NCBI RefSeq assembly: GCF_008838325.1
Contig: NZ_CP042829.1
Span: forward strand, 992,001-1,056,000
Reading direction: 5' to 3'
DNA length: 64,000 nucleotides
From: Tepidiforma bonchosmolovskayae
Lineage (GTDB): Bacteria > Chloroflexota > Dehalococcoidia > Tepidiformales > Tepidiformaceae
A program made the position numbers and the translations under genes. A model generated the notes under the pieces. The model had not been told where the DNA came from, made no database searches, and worked only from the letters and a program-made list of their open reading frames with translations. Of the stretch, positions 16,881 to 47,028 are shown in pieces (the first letter of the stretch is position 1; each line of letters opens with the position of its first letter).

Positions 16881-18498
16881 TCAGGCGCGGCGGCGGCTCA
16901 GCGCGAGGAGGCCGAGGCCGGAGGCAAGGAGGACGAGCCCAGCGGCGAGCGGCCAGCCGGGGAGCCCGGCAGCGGGCGCGCCCGTGCCCGTGGCGGGCGG
17001 CCGGGGCGTGGGCTGAGCGGTGACTTCGCCGGCCACGGAGGTCACGGACGGAGTCGGCGACGGGCTGGGCGACGCGGTCGGCTGCTCAATCGGCGCGGGC
17101 GGAGCGGGCGTCGCGGGCGGGGCAGGGGTTGCCGGCGGGGCGGGCGGGGGGGGGGGGGGTGGGAGGCGGCGGCGGGGGCGCGCAGCGCGGGTCGGCGGGG
17201 TCGACGCACGGCGGGTTGAAGTCGCGGATGTTCAGGAAGTCCACCGTCACCGTCTCGCCGCCCTGCTGCGGCTGGACCGTCTGCGTCACGAACTGCGGCG
17301 TCCAGCCGGGCTGGAGCGTCTCGGTGATGGTGTAGCTGCAGCCGACCGCTGGCGGCAGGTCCGGGAATTCGACGACGCCGTCCGCGCCGGTTGTCCCCGT
17401 CAGCGGACCCACGCCGCAGCCTTCGAGCGTGAACTGCCAGCCCGGGCCGTCGGAGGTGAAGCCGACGACGTTCAGGGTCTTATGGACGCGGATGGTGACG
17501 GGGCAGCGCGCCGGGTCGCCCTTGAGGATGACGGAGGCCGAGTCCTGGAGTTTGACGTCGACCTTCGGGAACGTCGAGTACGGCATCGTCTCGGCGAGGA
17601 GGTGCACCATGGCAGTGTTGGAGATGACCTGGTCCTCGCAGGTGCGCTGCGGGAGCTGCTTCGGGCGGACGCGGAACCGGATTTCGAGGCCGTTGACGTC
17701 GGCAGAGAAGGACTTGCATTCGTCGTTGCGCAGGGCGAACGACGCGAGGCCGTATTCGAACCAGGGCATTGGGGGCGTACCGCAGCTGGCCTTAACGGCG
17801 TGCGGGCCATCGATGACGGACACGCCGGGGTCGTAGAAGTTGATGTGGAGCGAGTCGGGCGTGCGGAGCCGGTAGCTGCTGGAGAGGACGATATCGAAGG
17901 CGATGTCGGCCGGGTCATCGACGACGGGGATGACCGGCGTCTTGGTCAGCGAGAAGGCGTCGAGCTGGGCGGCGCTGCCGGTGCGGTTGATGATCGTGAC
18001 CGTACAGTCGGGGGCATTGCCTGCGCCAGGACTCGGCTCCTTGAGTTCTTCGAGCGCACACGTTCCGGGGTAGAGGAAAAGGACGGCGCCGCCGGCCGGG
18101 AGCGGCACGGGCAAAGAGGCGCCGCCGCCGCGCGGCTGGTAGGTGAATAAGGCGGTCCAGGGGGCCTGGGGTTCTTCATAGATGAGTACCTTCGTCGGCG
18201 TGTCGAAGGTGAACTTCTCGCAGACAGCGCCATTGGGACCGGGCGTTGTGATGACCGGCCAGAAGTTGTTGCTGCCGACCTTGATGGCGAACTTCGCCTC
18301 GGACTCAAGGCGTTCGACGCCTTCGACCTGCTTGCAGACGACGAGCGTGGCCTGCTGCGACTGGACCTGGGCTGCATCGGAACCGTCGAGGACGACGGCG
18401 CGGGCCGTAGCGCCGAACGCCGCAAGGGCAAGGAGCACCATGCCGACGAGGGCTGCGGGCCGGGTGAGCGAACGACAAATTCTGACCGTGGAGCGCAC
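16881..18498 (-). pseudogene. Surface protein with Pro-rich stalk and C-terminal anchor, frame-disrupted at a poly-G tract
   Basis: ATG at 18498 starts a secreted protein: signal peptide MRSTVRICRSLTRPAALVGMVLLALAAFGATARA. A large extracellular part of about 300 residues without recognised motifs follows. Then comes a beta-rich module ([23 protein letters not shown]...[17 protein letters not shown]) typical of SpaA/prealbumin-like repeats, then a proline run. The frame as given stops at 17086. After the 14-C stretch (minus strand), the next frame reads PAPPATPAPPATPAP...EQPTASPSPSPTP and continues to a cell-wall/membrane anchor: [20 protein letters not shown], a hydrophobic helix and SRRRA, with stop at 16881. 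One C fewer in the tract restores a single ~538-residue protein. It may be an artefact, a broken gene, or a phase-variable surface protein. Confidence 0.7.
17146..17159. repeat. Poly-G run of 14 (poly-C in the coding strand)
   Basis: A 14-base homopolymer encodes part of the proline stalk of the surface protein and coincides with the point where its frame is lost. The paralogous stalk in the gene at 18689-20428 uses interrupted codons and has no such run. Runs of this length slip readily in replication and are also a known source of base-calling error. Confidence 0.85.
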
Positions 18499-38531: not shown

Positions 38532-41500
38532 TCAGGAGGCAGCCGCGGCCGCGGACCCGGCGCGTTCGAGAGCTGAGGTGATGACCTCCTGGGCGATGGT
38601 GCGGTCGAGCTGGTCGTGCTGGTGCTGATTCTGGTAGGTGCGAAGGCAGCCGTAACAGGAGCTGTGCTCGCCGCATGCACTGCAATTGCAGACCTCAAGG
38701 GCCTCACGCATCACGCACGCGAACTGTTCAAAGGCGGAGCGGGCGAGGCCGGCGCCGCCCGGCACGTTGTCGTAGAGGACGAAGACTGGCTGGCCGGCTT
38801 CGAGGTAGGTGAGACCCCCGAGGTCGTCGTCGCCGGCTTTGAGGAACCGCCGGGCGCCCTCGCGGAGTGCAGCGAGGACGGACGCCCTGGCCGAATCGGC
38901 CGCCAGGTCCTGGTCGACGAACTTGAACTCGGCGATATCGGAGGTGAAGAGGTGGCCGAGGTCGACCCGCGCGAGCGTTTTGGTGCACTTCTGCCCGGTG
39001 ACGGGGTGCTTATGGCTGCCGTTGCCTTCGCGAGTTGGCGCGGCAGCACCGGCCGTCGCGAAGCCGCAGGTATGGCAGAGCCGGAAGCCCCTGCCGTAGG
39101 CGTTGTTGATGACGGCGAGTGAGCCCTGCCTGGTGAAGCGGCCGAGCACGAGGTGGGCCGAAGGCGGCCCGAGGACACAGGTGCGGTCCTGCTGGGGGCC
39201 GAAGTCGTAGAAGAGCATCCGGGAGGCGAAGATGCGGGGAGGGCGTTCCTCGCCGAGGCCCTTCCGCGGCGGGGGTGCAGCGACGAAGCCGAAGACCGGG
39301 TCGACGAACGTCCTGTTCATGGTCTGCCCGTGGCACTGGGGGCAGGAGCCGCCAGCCTCGGGGTCGAGGTAAATGCGGTTGCAGCGTTCGCAGACCGCGT
39401 ACTTCCGTTCGGGGAGCTGCCGGTTGGGGAGCAGCTGCAGACCGGCGGATTTCCAGAATTGCTTGGCGGCGACGACCCCGGAGCCGGGCGCGTACTCAGA
39501 GACGGCGACCCTGAGGTCGCGCTGGAGTTCGATGTCGCGGGCGACCTCGGCGGAGACGTGGGCCGTTTTGAGCGGCACGACATCCACCGGGAACCCGTAC
39601 TTGGGCAGCACGTTGGCGCTGGCGAGGGTGCCGAGGAGCTCGGCCCGGCTGATGGTGTTGAGCACCTTCTGGTAGCGGTCGGCCTGCTGGAAGCGGTGGT
39701 TCGCCGCAGCCTCGTCCATTAGTCGGCGGTACTGCTGCATATCGGCGATCTTTTCCCGCTCAACCCGGGCGAGCGGCGACTGGAAGGGGTCCGGGTCGGC
39801 GAGGGCTGCCGCCCAGGCCCAGTCCTGGACGCCGAGTTCCTCGTGGAGTTCGGGCGGGACAATGCGCGTGAGTTCGTCACGAAGGCCCGCGTCACGCGAG
39901 AGGAGGTACTGGCGGAACTCCTCGCAGGGACTGCCTGCGCCGTCGCCGAAAAACTTCTCGACGACCCGGGGCCATTCCGGGGATTTCCCGTAGTTCGTCC
40001 TGAGGAAGCGGGAGAGCGCGACAGAGTGGACGTGGCGGCGGACGATGGGAACGTTGCCGGACGGGATTTGCGGAGCCGGGACTTTGCCGGCGACATAGTT
40101 AAGCGGGTAGGCGAAAACCTGTCGGTCGTGGGGGCGGAGCTGGGCAAACGTGACGATGAGCGCTGCGGACGAGGCTCTGCGCCCGGCGCGGCCAGCGCGC
40201 TGGACGTAGTTCGCGGCGCTGGGCGGCACGTTGCGCAGGAGGACCACCTCGAGTTCGCCCACGTCGACGCCCAGCTCGAAGGTTGTTGAGCAGCTCAGGA
40301 CATTGACGCGGCCGTTTTTCGAGACGAAGTCGCCCTGGATTTCGGATGCCTTTTGGGTGGACCACTGGGCCGTGTGCTCCTCGGCATACATGGGGCCGAG
40401 CGGAGGCTCCTGGTACATCGCCCGGTAGTGGTCGAGCGGGAGCTCCGAGGCCGGCTCCAGGCGGCCGCTGCAGCGGAATGACGGGCAGACGCCGGCGACG
40501 GCTGCCGGCTCGATCGTTCCGCAGGACGAGCACTGGAGGAGCGCCCGGGGCGGACGGAATTCCCAGGAGTTCGGGTTGAGCCTGTAGACGATGCCGTGGT
40601 TCGGTTCGTTTGACGGCTGGAGGATGCTCCTGAACGGTGAATCCTGGTCTGACAGGTATCGCCAGATGTCCTGGAGCAAGGCGCGAGCGGTGGTTTTGCT
40701 CTCGCCGACGGAGGCGGTCGGGTTCTTCGCCTGGTGGATGCGAACGAGGTAGTCGAGGCGCCGGTTAATGGCAGGATGCTGTGGGACCCAGCTAAGGATT
40801 TCGAGTTCGGCTGTCCTGGCAGGCCCGTCCTGCCGCACCGCGTAGCGCTTGTTGCGTGGTTCGAAAATCTCGCTCGAGACGTCGACCCCCTGCGGCATGC
40901 TGACCACCTGCGCGGCAAGCAGCGTTTTCAGGAGCTCTTCGAGGAGGACCCATGCCTCTTCCGGCGTCAGCGACCAGGGCGGGCTGAGGAGCGGCCGGGG
41001 CGGGGTCCACGTGCCGGGGCGAGCGAGCCTGAGTTCGGCCAGGCCAACGCCTGCGAGCGACTGGCGCTCGTCCATGGCGGTGAGTTCCGCGATAAGCCAT
41101 TCGACGGCCAGATCTTTGCGTCGAAGGGCGGACGTGTCGCTGGTGAAGAAGCCTGCCCGGTCCATAGCGCTGGCGAGCCGGCTGCCGAGACTTTCGAGCC
41201 TGAGTCCCTCTCCGCCGGGCGTTTCCCAGGTCTCGCGCAGCACCTGGTAGATGACCCTCCGCCGGGCGGTCCGGTTGTAGGTCCGCTCGAGGTAAGCGGC
41301 GAAGAATGCGGCGTCCTGCCGGCTGTCGGAGAACGCCAGGAAGCGCGGACGTTCCTCGCCGCGAGGCAGGGCATCGAACAGCGCGGAGGCGATGACCGCC
41401 GGGGGCGCATCGGAGCCGAGACTCAACCGCCGGGGCCCGCGCTGGCTCGACGGCGCCTTGCAGTTGACGCAGCGCACGGCTCCTGATTCGGTGCGGGCAG

Positions 41501-43189
41501 CGACTGTCATCGGCGTCGGCCGCGGGTTCGGGCAGTTGCAATCCCCGCTGGAGCCGGCCCGCAGGCAGGAGAAACACAGGGAGAGCTGCTGTTCGTCCTT
41601 TTTTCCCCCTGGAGCACGAGCTCGACGAGTTGACCCGGCTCTTCGGGTTCGTCGACCGGGTCCTCAGCGACTTTCGGGCCGAGGAACAGCACCTCCCGGG
41701 AGGAATCCGGTAGGTTGAGCGCCGCCTGGAGGCGCCCAGAACGTTCGTCACCCGAGACAGTGCCCCGAAGGTGCCACTGCCCGCAGCGGCGGCAGGTTGC
41801 GACTTCGATGACCATGGCCGCCGGACCACAGATATCGCAGTGGCGCGCCGACTCGAGGAAGACCCGGGGGCCGCCATCGTGGTCCCGCAGGCAGACGAAC
41901 ATGCCATCGGGGGAGCGGACGAAGGTGTGATACTTGGCGCGGAGCAGAGGGAGCCCCTGCGGGTCGCGCAGCGATGAAAGCGCCCGGACGACGGAGGCCG
42001 TCAGTTCGAAGGGGTCGGCGTCGCCGAGCATTGCGGCTGCCTCCTCAAGAGTGAGCTGCTTCGCCCCGAGCGACGTGAGGAGGTCCTGCACCCTCGGGTC
42101 GGCGAGCAGCGCGTCGGAGTTCCCGGTCCGAACGGCCTGTTCGAGGTCGATCCGAGGACCCGGGGCAGGGAGCCGCGGCGCTTCCCGGGAGGCGACGATG
42201 ACGTCCTGCCGCGCAGGGTCGTCGTCATCGCATTCGAAAGGCAGCCCGAAGAGGTCCGAGGCGAATTTGGCGATCTGTTTCCGGTCTTCCGGCCCGCCGG
42301 CGGTGGCGGAGGTCGCGATGGCCTGGGTTTTGCCCGGCCCTCTGCCGACCCGGTCAAGCAGCCTGCGCAGGAGCATGCCGATCTCGAGGCCCATCGTTCC
42401 CTCGTAGCTGTGGACCTCATCGAGGACGATAAAGCGCCACTCGTTGTCTCCGGAGACAGCGAAGAGCGGCGAGTCGTCCGGCCGGATCAGAAGGTACTCG
42501 AGCATTGCATAGTTGGTCAGCAGCAGATGAGGAGGACGCTCGCGCATCTCTTGGCGGCCGAACATCTCGTTAGGCAGAATGGTTTCGACGCCGCTGTTCT
42601 TCGCCTTTTCGATCCCTTCGGCTCTTGTCTCGGGCGTATCTCCGGTGTACCGGCCAAAGGTCACCTCCGGGAAATCCTCCAGCAACTCCCTGAGCCGCTT
42701 CAGCTGGTCGTTGGCCAGCGCGTTCATGGGATACAGCAGCAGTGCACGGACACCGCTGCGAAGGCTACCCTGTTCCTGCTCACGGAATATTTGATTGATG
42801 ATCGGGAGTAGAAAGCTCTCGGTCTTGCCGCTTCCGGTCCCGGTGGCCACGACCACATTGCGACGCTCGGTGACGAGCTTGCGGATGGCCGTCTCCTGGT
42901 GCCGGTAGAGCGGCCGGTGGATGGAAAACCCGCCGTTACTTTCGAGCCACCGCGGGCTGAGGACCCCTTCTCGGACAAGGTCATTGGGGGTGACCCCGTG
43001 CTGGTAATTCTGGGACGCCTCGAGGAAGGGGCCCTTCAGCCACGGCGTGCGCACCCTGTCAAAAGCTTCCTCGATGGCGCGGTTGAGCTGCGGGTCATTG
43101 GAACGCAACGAGGTGCGCAGGTAACGACGGTAGGCGGTCTCGACCTCCCCGGTCGCGCGCAGGGGGTCCAGGTTGTTTGTGGCGCTCAT
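38532..43189 (-). pseudogene. DUF1998-type DEAD/DEAH helicase (DruE-like), frame interrupted at a G5A6 tract
   Basis: ATG at 43189 overlaps the preceding gene's stop (ATGA). The first frame (560 residues) holds RHQETAIRKLV, the P-loop VVATGTGSGKTESFLLPI, LLLYPMNALANDQ, and the DEVHSYEGTMG box, then stops at 41507. The second frame (to 38532) continues without a gap: zinc ribbon CFSC...CNCPNP...CVNC, LAFSDSRQDAAFFAAYLERTY, CSTTFELGVDVGELEVV, YVQRAGRAGRR, and the C-terminal cysteine cluster CNCSACGEHSSCYGCLRTYQNQHQHDQLDR of DUF1998/MZB type. One extra base in the GGGGGAAAAAA tract (41599-41609) joins them into about 1,552 residues. It could be a mutation, a base-call error, or a slippage site. 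Druantia DruE and other defence helicases share this architecture. Confidence 0.75.
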
Positions 43190-46100
43190 TGTTGGACTCG
43201 CAGGCAAAGAATTTCCGCGTAACAGAGGTCGCGCTCATAGATCCTCGGCATGTACCTCTCGAGCCACACGGCGACTTCATCGAGCCAGGGGACGGCTTCC
43301 GGCGGGAGGCTCCCGCGTTTTCCCCTGGCCATCTGCCTTCGCACGAGGGCGACGGCCAGGGACATGCGCCCGAGGACGGGCCAAGATTCGGGCAGTACGC
43401 GCTGAGGGAGCATCCATCGCCGGTCGAGCCCTCCCGGACCGAGGAGCTCGTCGGCCATTCGTTCTAACGGCTCCCGACAGCTCAGGTATCCACGAACGAG
43501 CCGCCGACGTCTCTGCTCGAACTCCCCATCGGCGGTATGGCGCGAAAGCTGTTTCAGGGTCGCGAAGGCCGCGTTGAGCCAGCCATCCCGGTCGAACATC
43601 CGCCCGGGGACGGGCAAAAGCGCCGCCTCCATCGCCTCGAGTCTGTCGTCGTCCGGTTGGAACTCGGGCCCATTGATGGAACCGCACTCCGGGAGAGATT
43701 CGAACGCATCACCATCGCTGTCATCGGTTTCGAGGTCAGGCCAGCCAAGGTACGTGTGGCAGCGGGCGACTGCGCCGGGGTCGTTTCGCGCCAGAGCGAG
43801 GTCATGCCATGCCCCGAGCGGCAGCCATGCCTGCCAGAGGCGATCCTCTCTCCCCTCGATCATTTCTCCAGGAACCTGCCCCTGCCAGCGTTCGATGCCG
43901 AGGCCGACGAGGAGACATCCAGGGCGGGACGTGCCATCCTGGTCAACCAGCCACTGCCAGAAATCCTGCCGGGCATCGGCGCTCTTTCTGCTGGCCAGGC
44001 TTTCGGCTGCCAGCCACCATGGGATCCGGAGGATTTCCCGCATCGCCCCGCAATCGACTGACTTCGCAACGATCGCGAGCAGCTCCCGAAGCTGGTACGG
44101 GCCGAGGTCTCTGAAGAATGCACGAGTTTCATCGGCCGCTGCGTTCGGGGAGGTGAGCAGAATGCGTTCAAGGGTGCCAGCGACGGTTGGTGGCAGGACA
44201 TCCGCCCGTTTTCGCAAGTCATCTTCACTTCCGATATGAAACTGAACAATGCGGCCTACCGTCCTTTGCCCGGTCCATTCGTCATCGACCCGCAGCTCAA
44301 GGCTGTACCGACCGGGGAGGAGCCTCGAAACCTCGATGCTGGCGGTGCCAGTGGTGTTGTCGTAAGAGACCGGGCTGGAGAGCGGCTCCTGCCACGGTCG
44401 TGTGAGACACCGTACTGTTCCGTGGGCACCCGGTACCCGACGCCTCTGGATCCAGCTGAGCGTTGTTCGATGCCCTGGGTGCGCGGCGGATACGTGCTCA
44501 ATATCTACCGCGATATCGACCGTTGCTACCGTGATGGGACTGCCGACTTCGTTCCCATTTGACGAGAGCAGCTGAAGCTCGAAGTCGTAGTTCGGAATGT
44601 GGCTGCCGCGGAGCGTGTCCAAAAATTCGCTAATCGAGAATCTTGCAAGATTCTTCTGTTTCGCCCTGGCCCGGAGGCGTTGCAGGATTCTCCCGGGACG
44701 CTGCACCAGCCGCAGTTCGACGTCATACTTCGGCGGCACCCTGGCCAAAAGGACCCCTGCGCTCCCCGATTCCAGGTCGTCGATGTTGAACCGAAGAGCT
44801 GTGTTGTCCTCTTGCTGCTCCAGGCCGCGGCCGACCCAGCGCCACTGGGCGACGTTCAGCCGGATGGCCGCCATGGTCTCCCGGCCGGTCGCGGTGTCGC
44901 GGACAGTGAACGGGATGCGCCCGTTCCGGTTGCGGTCGTAGAGCCGCCATCCGTCCGGGCGCGGTTCGACGAAATCACCTTCTTCGAGGACGCTGATGCC
45001 GTCTCTGGTAGTGATGTCGACCGTTGAAACTGCCAGGTCTGGCCCTGCGACACCGGGATGCTCGTCGACCTGGAATTCCATGGCGGGGAGCAGGTCGAGG
45101 ATGAATTCCGCGCTGCGCCCGAGCGGCCCATTGACGCGCACGTGCCACCTGCCGACGTCACGGCCCGGGATCAGGTCCTCCAGGTGCAGGCGCACCCGGC
45201 CGCCCGGCAACAGCTCTGGAGAGAGCTCGGCAGCCGACATTCTTCCCCGCTCCGTGCCATCGTCGGACCGAACCGAGACGGTCCAGCTGGCAAGGTAGTC
45301 GGCGGCGTCACGATGCCCGGGAGGGCCGGGAAGGATGACCGAGGGGAGATTCGTCTCAAAGGCGAGCGCGGTTTCGCCATAGGGTTCCAGGTAAGCCGGA
45401 ACGTCGGGGCAGTCCAGGACAGGCTCGGCATCCGCGTCGACGAAAACCTGGTGCTGTGCTCTCCCTGCGCTTAGATTGATGTGCGACAGACCGTCGGGGA
45501 GCTCGAAATGCCTCGCGACGATAGAACGCCATCGTGATGCCGGCTCGCCGAGGTCTTCGACCGGACCGATTTCTCCGTCGGCCCCCTGCACGCATGCCCC
45601 AGCGGGGGCGACGAGGAAGAAGCTCCGGGTGGAAAGGGTCCGAGTCCCGCTGATGGCTTTGCATGATTTCCCATGGAAGAGCAGAAACGGGCGTTCCGGG
45701 GTTAATCCCTCAAAGCTGCGCGATGTCAGCAACCCGTTTTCAGTAAAGCCGAACACCTGGATTGACGAGAAGGGCTCTTCGACCAGGAGCTCTTCGTACG
45801 GCGCTGGCCTCCTCCAGCTTTCCTTCCAGGGCACATCGAAGTAGGAACCTCCGGAGAGCTGTACCTTCCAGCGGACTACCGGGCTGTCGATATACGGGAG
45901 CCGAAGCAGGATACGGACAAATTCGGGGTCGAACACCAGGGCAGGCGCCGTCCATCTTTGGCGAACCCTCGACCGCTGCTGCCCGCGGCCGTCAACCCAT
46001 GCTGACACCTCGTCGACGAACCAGGAGGGCAGGCCGGGATCGTCGATTCCGTGGACAAGGTCCATGGTGCGCTGGATGACATCTTCGGCAACGCGCCCGC

Positions 46101-46638
46101 CATAGACGACGAACCGGTAGACCGGACGGTGCATTCCGGCGTGATTTCGGATAAGGCGTTCGCGAATCTCCGAAATGTCATATCCGTAACGTTCCGGATC
46201 GGTAATGCTTGGCCAGATGACGTGCTCCATGAAGGATGGAACCAGCGCCCGCGGAACCATGGCATGGGCGAGAATTGGCGTGACGTAAGGTAATGCACCT
46301 TCCTCAACGAGCTGTCGGAACGTTGGCAGATGATTCCGCTCAAGATAATCTGCGAACCACTGACCAAGTTCCGGCTGATTTATCTCATAACCGGGAGTAT
46401 CCAGCAGGCTTCGAACTTTAGGCCAGTACTCATGCCCATCATACCGAAATTTAGCGACATTAACGAGCACGGCTGCGAGACAATGGGGATATTGCCTCTG
46501 AATGATGTGAGTTGGAAGCCTTCGAAGATGACTGCAGATGTCGTCGAGCTCAGCTTCTTCGAGCGGAATTTCGCCGATCAGCCGGTGCCGTGGGATTTCG
46601 TCGCGCAGACGCTGTTCGTATTCAAGCAACGTGGCCAC
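43186..46638 (-). CDS. Large defence-associated protein, DruH-like by context
   Basis: GTG at 46638 (GGAG eight bases upstream) gives 1,150 residues: MATLLEYEQRLRDEIPRHRL. No recognised catalytic motif, signal or membrane helix. The N-terminal third is helical/mixed (HLRRLPTHIIQRQYPHCLAAVLVNVAKF). The centre (about 380-760) reads as repeated beta-sandwich-like segments (ISVLEEGDFVEPRPDGWRLYDRNRNG; GTASIEVSRLLPGRYSLELRVDDEW). The end is helical (RYMPRIYERDLCYAEILCLRVQQ). Its stop overlaps the helicase ATG, so the two are made as a pair. A large unknown protein followed by a DUF1998 helicase is the Druantia type III layout (DruH-DruE). I infer the homology from context and size, not from matched residues. 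The first 400 bases are relatively AT-rich, a sign of transfer. Confidence 0.7.
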   Translation of the reverse strand: MATLLEYEQRLRDEIPRHRLIGEIPLEEAELDDICSHLRRLPTHIIQRQYPHCLAAVLVNVAKFRYDGHEYWPKVRSLLDTPGYEINQPELGQWFADYLERNHLPTFRQLVEEGALPYVTPILAHAMVPRALVPSFMEHVIWPSITDPERYGYDISEIRERLIRNHAGMHRPVYRFVVYGGRVAEDVIQRTMDLVHGIDDPGLPSWFVDEVSAWVDGRGQQRSRVRQRWTAPALVFDPEFVRILLRLPYIDSPVVRWKVQLSGGSYFDVPWKESWRRPAPYEELLVEEPFSSIQVFGFTENGLLTSRSFEGLTPERPFLLFHGKSCKAISGTRTLSTRSFFLVAPAGACVQGADGEIGPVEDLGEPASRWRSIVARHFELPDGLSHINLSAGRAQHQVFVDADAEPVLDCPDVPAYLEPYGETALAFETNLPSVILPGPPGHRDAADYLASWTVSVRSDDGTERGRMSAAELSPELLPGGRVRLHLEDLIPGRDVGRWHVRVNGPLGRSAEFILDLLPAMEFQVDEHPGVAGPDLAVSTVDITTRDGISVLEEGDFVEPRPDGWRLYDRNRNGRIPFTVRDTATGRETMAAIRLNVAQWRWVGRGLEQQEDNTALRFNIDDLESGSAGVLLARVPPKYDVELRLVQRPGRILQRLRARAKQKNLARFSISEFLDTLRGSHIPNYDFELQLLSSNGNEVGSPITVATVDIAVDIEHVSAAHPGHRTTLSWIQRRRVPGAHGTVRCLTRPWQEPLSSPVSYDNTTGTASIEVSRLLPGRYSLELRVDDEWTGQRTVGRIVQFHIGSEDDLRKRADVLPPTVAGTLERILLTSPNAAADETRAFFRDLGPYQLRELLAIVAKSVDCGAMREILRIPWWLAAESLASRKSADARQDFWQWLVDQDGTSRPGCLLVGLGIERWQGQVPGEMIEGREDRLWQAWLPLGAWHDLALARNDPGAVARCHTYLGWPDLETDDSDGDAFESLPECGSINGPEFQPDDDRLEAMEAALLPVPGRMFDRDGWLNAAFATLKQLSRHTADGEFEQRRRRLVRGYLSCREPLERMADELLGPGGLDRRWMLPQRVLPESWPVLGRMSLAVALVRRQMARGKRGSLPPEAVPWLDEVAVWLERYMPRIYERDLCYAEILCLRVQQ

Positions 46639-46691: not shown

Positions 46692-46697
46692 ATTATA
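46692..46697 (-). promoter_or_regulatory. -10 box of the DruH-like/helicase operon
   Basis: A consensus TATAAT on the minus strand, 54 bases before the GTG of the large protein. It stands out in a GC-rich region. No good -35 hexamer is visible at 16-18 bases. Confidence 0.55.
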
Positions 46698-47028
46698 GGG
46701 TGTTTGCTCCCGGCTCGCGATAGCGACAGGAATCTGTCGCCATTTCACGACGGCACGGGGGGGGGGGCGGCAACTGATTTCGCGAGCGGTCGAGCCCGGG
46801 TCGATGGCCGACGGCGGGAAAGTTACGCGGGAAGGGGGCCGGCCGCCGGGGGCGGACGGTCCGGACGCCGCTCCGCCCGGTGCGCCCCCGGGGCTTTCGG
46901 CCACCTCATCCCCGCCGAGTTGCTCGCCCGGCGCTTCGACATCCGGTCCGAAGGCGTGTCACGAACGGCGTGAACCAGTACAGGAGGTTCACCGAAGGCG
47001 GGCGAGGCGCTAGGATTGAAGGCAGCGG
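46698..47028. other. Gene-free stretch between defence operon and tRNA
   Basis: No supported gene. It contains a 10-base G run near 46757, GC-rich low-complexity sequence, and the upstream region of both the defence operon and the tRNA gene. Frames crossing the tRNA on the minus strand are the common false reading of tRNA genes. Confidence 0.4.

What the first reader, a model, noticed from the sequence alone, without database searches (positions are those of the whole stretch)
38532..46638. Two-gene defence module resembling Druantia type III beside a type I-G CRISPR system
Seen: a 1,150-residue protein without recognisable motifs is translationally coupled (ATGA) to a ~1,550-residue DEAD/DEAH helicase with the P-loop, the DEVHSYEGT box and a DUF1998-type cysteine cluster at the end. 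Established: Druantia type III is DruH (large unknown) plus DruE (DUF1998 helicase), and other defence systems use DUF1998 helicases too. Inference: this pair is a Druantia-III-like or a new two-gene system. Sequence divergence might make it a distinct branch.
Basis: partly seen in the sequence, partly recalled or inferred. Interest (0 to 1): 0.75.

Follow-up and report, generated by a model that had tools for sequence, protein, structure and literature searches.

The report
Divergent Druantia-III-like pair, helicase frame broken
In a heat-loving Tepidiforma bacterium, two neighbouring genes form a distant cousin of the two-gene anti-phage system Druantia III; the helicase gene is broken by a frameshift in this genome, and relatives in the same phylum have the sensor gene fused to a complete RNA-polymerase sigma factor.

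Summary
The window is from Tepidiforma (Chloroflexota). The pair is real: an 1,150-aa protein (43186-46638, minus strand) overlaps by ATGA with a YprA/DruE-family helicase. Whether this is mutation or sequencing error is undecided; intact copies exist elsewhere.

PADLOC scores the helicase best as DruE3/DruE1 (to 2e-97). It has the helicase motifs, ten CxxC pairs and the MZB/DUF1998 domain, but no C-terminal nuclease. No PADLOC DruH model matches the partner. Profile-profile comparison still links the partner family to DruH (P 1e-9 to 3e-12; controls P >= 0.26), with the same layout of helical head, Ig-like tandem and helical tail. Across Chloroflexota, 15 of 16 partner loci with readable context have a DruE-type helicase next door. 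Their DruE proteins form one clade (support 100) outside canonical type III.

Verdict: the Druantia-III-like reading is supported, as a divergent branch. The C-terminus of the DruH-like protein is exchangeable; in seven loci it is a complete primary-type sigma-70 factor. I found no report of that fusion. It is the most surprising result here, but it lies in relatives, not in the window.

The parts
43186..46638 (-). DruH-like partner protein, 1,150 aa, GTG start, stop overlapping the DruE start (ATGA)
   Evidence: ORF; no Pfam/PADLOC/NCBIfam hit; homologous to DruH by hhalign of family profiles; conserved beside DruE in Chloroflexota
45955..46638 (-). N-terminal all-helical domain of the partner, residues 1-228; most conserved part of the family
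   Evidence: AlphaFold2 pLDDT 90.6, pTM 0.88; no clear PDB match, best Z 4.0; alignment A4
44230..45954 (-). Tandem Ig-like/beta core of the partner, residues about 229-803; contains the invariant DRNRNGRIPF motif of the Tepidiformales members
   Evidence: AlphaFold2 model; Foldseek and VIA-align matches are Ig/macroglobulin-type domains; carries the DruH similarity
43189..44229 (-). C-terminal helical part of the partner, residues about 804-1150; the exchangeable module (sigma-70 in distant relatives, not here)
   Evidence: low-confidence model; residues after about 900 unrelated to sigma-70 or to the DruH C-terminus by hhalign
41507..43189 (-). DruE-like helicase, N-terminal ORF (560 aa): RecA1, first zinc-binding pairs
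   Evidence: DruE3 3.3e-82; Pfam DEAD 1.9e-22
38532..41600 (-). DruE-like helicase, C-terminal ORF (992 aa from ATG 41510; frame open to 41600): RecA2, zinc-binding pairs, MZB/DUF1998 near the end; no nuclease domain
   Evidence: DruE1 1.9e-97, DruE3 6.3e-96; Pfam Helicase_C and MZB; ends about 37 aa after the last CxxC
42821..42841 (-). Walker A, GTGSGKT
42410..42421 (-). DEVH box (motif II)
38643..38873 (-). MZB (DUF1998) zinc-binding domain
   Evidence: PF09369 1.7e-13
41599..41609 (-). Site where the helicase frame breaks (G5A6 run)
   Evidence: homologues L008 and L011 read through here without a break
46692..46697 (-). TATAAT, -10-like hexamer 54 bp before the GTG; conserved in relative G004. 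No -35 match; promoter scan found none
46723..46740 (-). Inverted repeat GCGACAG-N4-CTGTCGC upstream of the -10; conserved in G004; possible operator

Best explanation
The pair is a divergent Druantia-type-III-like defence system. The 1,150-aa protein is a far diverged DruH: a conserved helical head, an Ig-like tandem that probably senses a phage product, and an exchangeable C-terminal module. The ~1,550-aa helicase is a DruE of the YprA family. By analogy with studied DruH-DruE pairs, the sensor would react to infection, and DruE would load on 3' single-stranded DNA in phage replication intermediates, move 3' to 5' with ATP, and block phage DNA replication or circularisation. DruE here has no fused nuclease, so the output must be strand separation or blockage, or cleavage by the DruH-like protein or a host nuclease. 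Shown here: genes, motifs, operon conservation, homology. Inferred: sensing, DNA loading, defence. In this genome as sequenced the helicase frame is broken, so this copy may be inactive unless the break is a sequencing error or the two halves assemble.
For: DruE models are the best PADLOC hits by a wide margin. DruE and DruH sit together in 15 of 16 Chloroflexota loci with readable context; the exception is a decayed copy. Family profile A2 against canonical DruH profile A3: P 1.1e-9 one way and 3.5e-12 the other over 607-845 colinear columns; reversed and block-shuffled controls P 0.26-0.77; most signal in the Ig core, P 5e-9. Same domain order as reported for DruH (PMC13192584). Size match to the tested mycobacterial pair, 1,132 + 1,667 aa with no nuclease (PMC13316683). 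Bell et al. describe a separate Druantia III-like DruE branch mostly without nuclease (PMC12458937). DruH remnant in G004 against the window gene: dN 0.124, dS 0.473, ratio about 0.26, so selection kept it.
Against: No PADLOC DruH model matches the partner or its relatives even at E 10. hmmsearch with the family profile does not find the canonical DruH proteins either. The narrow profile A1 fails against DruH. The N-terminal domain alone is only weakly like DruH (P 0.005) and the C-terminus not at all. Part of the Ig-core signal could be general Ig-fold similarity. The solved DruH (9tud) is not in the structure library used, so no direct fold comparison was possible. DruE is split in this genome. 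No defence assay.
Confidence: 0.77

Rival explanations
1. A separate two-gene system: the partner is not a DruH homologue but an unrelated Ig-repeat sensor recruited to a DruE-like helicase.
For: No HMM link to DruH; the C-terminal part is unrelated to the DruH C-terminus and the head only weakly similar; the DruE clade lies outside type III.
Against: Colinear profile-profile match over more than 600 columns, absent in controls; same order of domains, same gene order in most loci, same overlap style.
Confidence: 0.15
2. A decaying, non-functional remnant in Tepidiforma: the helicase frame break is a real mutation.
For: Break inside the zinc-binding region. T. flava DruE carries a different frameshift. 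In G004 at the same locus DruE and the DruH C-terminus are gone and the DruH remnant has stops.
Against: Only one break in about 8 kb of coding DNA; no stops elsewhere in either gene. The break is at the only run of six A in the gene, a typical place for a sequencing error. This speaks to the state of this copy, not to what the system is.
Confidence: 0.5
3. A DNA-repair helicase of the MrfA/YprA-only branch with an unrelated neighbour.
For: Shares SF2 motifs and MZB with MrfA/YprA (6znp, 4.5e-28 for the L011 helicase).
Against: Better match to solved DruE 9tu7 (1e-89) and PADLOC DruE; length about 1,550 against 751; conserved large partner gene.
Confidence: 0.02
4. A member of ARMADA or TALON, the YprA systems that also occur in Chloroflexota.
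For: YprA helicase in a Chloroflexota genome; L032 has a NERD-nuclease helicase gene beside the pair, as in TALON.
Against: No PglX/BrxHII genes, TPR-CSD or TBP beside the pair; in the tree the ARMADA helicases form a separate clade; no C-terminal Vsr or RNase H domain.
Confidence: 0.03

Closest known systems
Druantia type III (DruH + DruE) of Enterobacteria (PDB 9tud, 9tu7; PMC13192584)
   Same: Two-gene operon, large Ig-containing partner first, then a DruE-type YprA helicase with MZB; helical head, Ig core, helical tail in the partner
   Different: Partner not found by any DruH model; [quoted passage not shown] DruE outside the type III clade (p-AU 0.035 for one clade)
Mycolicibacterium smegmatis DruH-DruE, MSMEG_1253/1254 (PMC13316683)
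   Same: Sizes (1,132 and 1,667 aa), overlapping genes, DruE without a nuclease domain; closest in architecture
   Different: Sequence relationship not tested: the mycobacterial sequences were not at hand
Druantia type III-like branch of YprA helicases (PMC12458937, yellow branch)
   Same: Most often no nuclease domain on DruE, separate from canonical type III
   Different: Membership of that exact branch not tested; the paper's supplementary tables could not be read. Its main text does not mention DruH or a sigma factor
ARMADA types I and II, TALON, BRIGADE (PMC12458937)
   Same: YprA helicase core with zinc-binding inserts
   Different: Other partner genes; C-terminal Vsr or RNase H domains in ARMADA and TALON; ARMADA is a separate clade

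Membership tests
Druantia (DruE family) | DruE-type YprA helicase (PADLOC DruE model) | tested here: met
   DruE3/DruE1 best hits, 3e-82 and 2e-97 for the two ORFs
Druantia (DruE family) | MZB/DUF1998 zinc-binding domain and SF2 motifs | tested here: met
   PF09369 1.7e-13; Walker A, DEVH, SAT, QRAGRAGR, ten CxxC pairs
Druantia type III | Partner matches a DruH model (PADLOC DruH3, PDLC00038-00050) | tested here: not met
   No match for the window protein or six of seven relatives at E 10; the other matches only MzaA (one search shows two MzaA hits, none DruH). The same models do find Klebsiella DruH
Druantia type III | Partner homologous to DruH at profile-profile level | tested here: met
   hhalign A2/A3 P 1.1e-9 and A3/A2 3.5e-12; 14 controls P 0.26-0.77; Ig core alone 5e-9
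Druantia type III | Helical N-terminus, Ig-like core, helical C-terminus in DruH | tested here: met
   AlphaFold2 model of the window protein; matches of the core are Ig-type
Druantia type III | Partner has the DruH fold (direct superposition on 9tud) | not testable with these tools
   9tud is known by sequence but did not appear in the structure library, which ends in April 2026
Druantia type III | DruE inside the canonical type III clade | tested here: not met
   Separate clade, support 100; one-clade constraint p-AU 0.035; marginal
Druantia type III (enterobacterial form) | Two C-terminal PLD domains in DruE | tested here: not met
   Ends about 37 aa after the last MZB cysteine pair; no HKD motif. 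The mycobacterial pair also lacks them
Druantia type III-like branch of Bell et al. | DruE falls in the 'yellow' branch | not tested
   Their sequences and supplementary tables were not available
Druantia | Protects against phage | not testable with these tools
   Needs an experiment
TALON | TPR-CSD, TBP and NERD genes beside the YprA helicase, RNase H domain at its C-terminus | tested here: not met
   None beside the pair in the window; helicase ends at MZB

The most novel reading that the evidence does not exclude
The Chloroflexota DruH-like proteins are modular infection sensors with exchangeable C-terminal output modules. In one clade the module is a complete, apparently functional primary-type sigma-70 factor, so that sensing of phage is coupled to RNA polymerase: either the system switches on or redirects transcription after infection, or it watches phage take-over of RNA polymerase, while DruE attacks the DNA. 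The window protein is the sigma-less form of this sensor, with a C-terminal module of its own.
Probability: 0.35. Interest if true: 0.82.

Novelty: new variant of a known kind. Interest (0 to 1): 0.52.

Why it matters
Current defence annotation (PADLOC) sees the DruE here but not its partner, so Druantia-III-like systems in Chloroflexota are missed or half annotated. The divergent DruH family shows which part of DruH is kept (head and Ig core) and which part is swapped (C-terminus), which bears on how DruH senses and what it does. The sigma-factor fusions in relatives offer a direct experimental handle: they predict binding to RNA polymerase core, which no Druantia model so far includes.

Tried and rejected
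Narrow profile A1 against DruH: no signal (P 0.19); only the wider profile A2 gave it. Roseomonas partner L048 (1,325 aa beside a DruE) against A2: no signal, but a single sequence has little power. Partner against plasmids, phages, viral contigs and PDB sequences: nothing. Foldseek and VIA-align on the full model are filled with Ig and macroglobulin domains at low TM-score (0.05-0.13), not evidence for a specific family. Helical head alone: no clear PDB match; DruH 9tud did not appear in these lists. PADLOC family PDLC00039 in 251 Chloroflexota genomes: nothing, but it also rang in none of the controls, so absence is not shown. Programmed frameshifting at G5A6 considered: homologues L008 and L011 are open at this place and need no shift, so no support. 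A first tree used a wrong frame for the window's C-terminal ORF and was replaced. The profile A2 search of the order is swamped by ordinary sigma factors because A2 holds the fused sigma domains.

Full report
WHAT IS THERE. The window is G000:C1:992001-1056000 of a 2.75-Mb single-contig genome. The 1,150-aa ORF at 43186-46638 (minus) is real, with a GTG start. Its stop overlaps the ATG of the helicase (ATGA, 43189-43186). The helicase is two ORFs in different frames: 560 aa (41507-43189) and 992 aa (38532-41510, open upstream to 41600). The frame changes at a G5A6 run (41609-41599), between the first and second zinc-binding pairs. Read across that point the protein has 1,552 residues and aligns colinearly with intact homologues. 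By coincidence or not, the second ORF also begins with an ATGA overlap, at 41510.

IS THE BREAK REAL? Not decidable here. For a sequencing error: it sits on the only run of six A in the gene, it is the only break, and the rest of both genes is open. For a mutation: T. flava DruE has a different frameshift in another zinc-binding segment, and in the closer relative G004 the same locus keeps only a broken DruH remnant. The gene was under purifying selection while the two diverged: dN 0.124, dS 0.473.

THE HELICASE. PADLOC gives DruE3 3.3e-82 for the N-terminal ORF, and DruE1 1.9e-97 and DruE3 6.3e-96 for the C-terminal ORF; DpdJ, DrmA and BREX helicases are far behind. Walker A, DEVH, SAT, QRAGRAGR, ten CxxC pairs and the MZB domain are present. 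The protein ends about 37 residues after the last cysteine pair, with no PLD, Vsr or RNase H domain. The intact homologue L011 matches solved DruE 9tu7 at 1e-89, against 4.5e-28 for MrfA/YprA. In a tree of 26 helicases the 12 Chloroflexota proteins are one clade (support 100). With ARMADA helicases on the other side of the midpoint root, that clade lies outside canonical type III plus types I/II. Forcing Chloroflexota and canonical type III into one clade is marginally rejected (p-AU 0.035). These are quick trees and deep branches should be read with care.

THE PARTNER. It has no hit in Pfam, PADLOC, NCBIfam or PDB sequences. Relatives occur in 4 other genomes of its close kin and, more distantly, in 13 further genomes of a 400-genome sample of the phylum. 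Of these, the 11 read with enough sequence have a DruE-type helicase of about 1,650 aa adjacent in the same direction, usually with a short or no gap; L042 is a contig end, and one weak match (G357) was not read. Together with the window and its kin that is 15 of 16 loci with readable context; the exception is the decayed copy in G004. In L040 the order is reversed (DruE first).

IS IT DruH? PADLOC DruH models recognise Klebsiella DruH but not this family, even at E 10. A profile of 12 family members against 7 canonical DruH proteins does match: P 1.1e-9, or 3.5e-12 with query and template exchanged, over 607-845 colinear columns. Two reversed and twelve block-shuffled controls gave P 0.26-0.77. 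The signal is mainly in the Ig-like core (5e-9); the head is weak (0.005), the C-terminus absent. The AlphaFold2 model (pLDDT 74) has a helical head (1-222), a tandem of beta domains (233-802) and a helical tail, the order reported for DruH (PMC13192584). I therefore call it a probable far diverged DruH, not a model-defined one.

HOW IT WOULD WORK. Established elsewhere: E. coli DruH is a likely phage-protein sensor with weak nuclease activity, and DruE loads on 3' ssDNA (PMC13192584). The mycobacterial DruH-DruE, also without a nuclease domain on DruE, blocks phage DNA replication and circularisation (PMC13316683). By analogy, here the Ig core senses, DruE loads on replication intermediates, and the output is strand separation, blockage or cleavage by another protein. 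These steps are inferred.

THE C-TERMINUS IS EXCHANGEABLE. Seven relatives (L032, L033, L034, L036, L037, L038, L039) carry a sigma-70 factor in frame at the C-terminus: regions 1.2, 2, 3 and 4 in six, and 1.2, 2 and 3 in L037. The six aligned are 43-48% identical to a primary sigma of a Tepidiformales genome, with the -10-reading YATWW segment and the region 4 helix-turn-helix conserved. The six of these in the tree form one clade, so a single origin is likely. PADLOC calls this part MzaA in two of the proteins, so sigma-like domains in defence genes are not unheard of. A full-text search for Druantia with 'sigma factor' found nothing. The Tepidiforma proteins lack it.

SURROUNDINGS. Downstream lies a complete-looking type I-G CRISPR-Cas locus with an array of about 80 repeats, upstream a TerC/Alx gene. 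Compared with G004 the flanks are 78-93% identical, while DruE and the DruH C-terminus are replaced by a RecQ-like helicase with a zinc ribbon and an HD-type fragment: the slot turns over. A TATAAT 54 bp before the start and an inverted repeat GCGACAG-N4-CTGTCGC are conserved between the two genomes.

VERDICT. Novelty: a new variant of a known kind. The window pair alone is moderately interesting; the sigma-fused relatives raise the interest of the family.

Noticed in passing
L032:8298-12323, L033:4366-8400, L034:8280-12320, L036:4396-8433, L037:4886-10036, L038:7342-10755, L039:7360-11433: DruH-like proteins of other Chloroflexota fused in frame to a sigma-70 factor of primary type (regions 1.2, 2, 3, 4; region 4 not detected in L037), beside a DruE-type helicase.
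   Followed up: partly
L009 (T. flava), around 6984-6900: DruE frameshift at a different place from the one in the window, also inside a zinc-binding segment.
   Followed up: partly
L010:3217-8490 (G004): At the syntenic locus DruE and the DruH C-terminus are replaced by a RecQ-like helicase with Top1-type zinc ribbon plus an ORF that looks like a Cas3-type HD domain; a broken DruH remnant stays.
   Followed up: partly
window 46757-46767 and 17146-17159: Runs of 11 and 14 G on the plus strand, the only homopolymers of nine or more; the first lies about 120 bp upstream of the DruH-like start and is absent in G004. Possible phase-variable tract or assembly artefact.
   Followed up: no
L041:11431-14211 and L043:9-5480: An N6/N4 DNA methylase gene directly before the DruH-DruE pair in both loci; in L043 a DUF6079 gene precedes the methylase.
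   Followed up: no
L048:1998-11247 (Roseomonas mucosa plasmid): 1,325-aa orphan gene beside a 1,731-aa DruE3-type helicase; no DruH model match; on four Roseomonas plasmids. Possibly a further DruE partner family.
   Followed up: partly
L044:2373-12249 and L046:4179-12351 (cyanobacterial plasmids): DruE-type helicases of about 2,100 aa with unrecognised partner genes; their helicases are sister to the Chloroflexota clade (support 91).
   Followed up: partly
window 45955-46638: The helical head of the DruH-like protein is predicted with high confidence (pLDDT 90.6) yet has no clear match among solved structures searched (best Z 4.0).
   Followed up: yes
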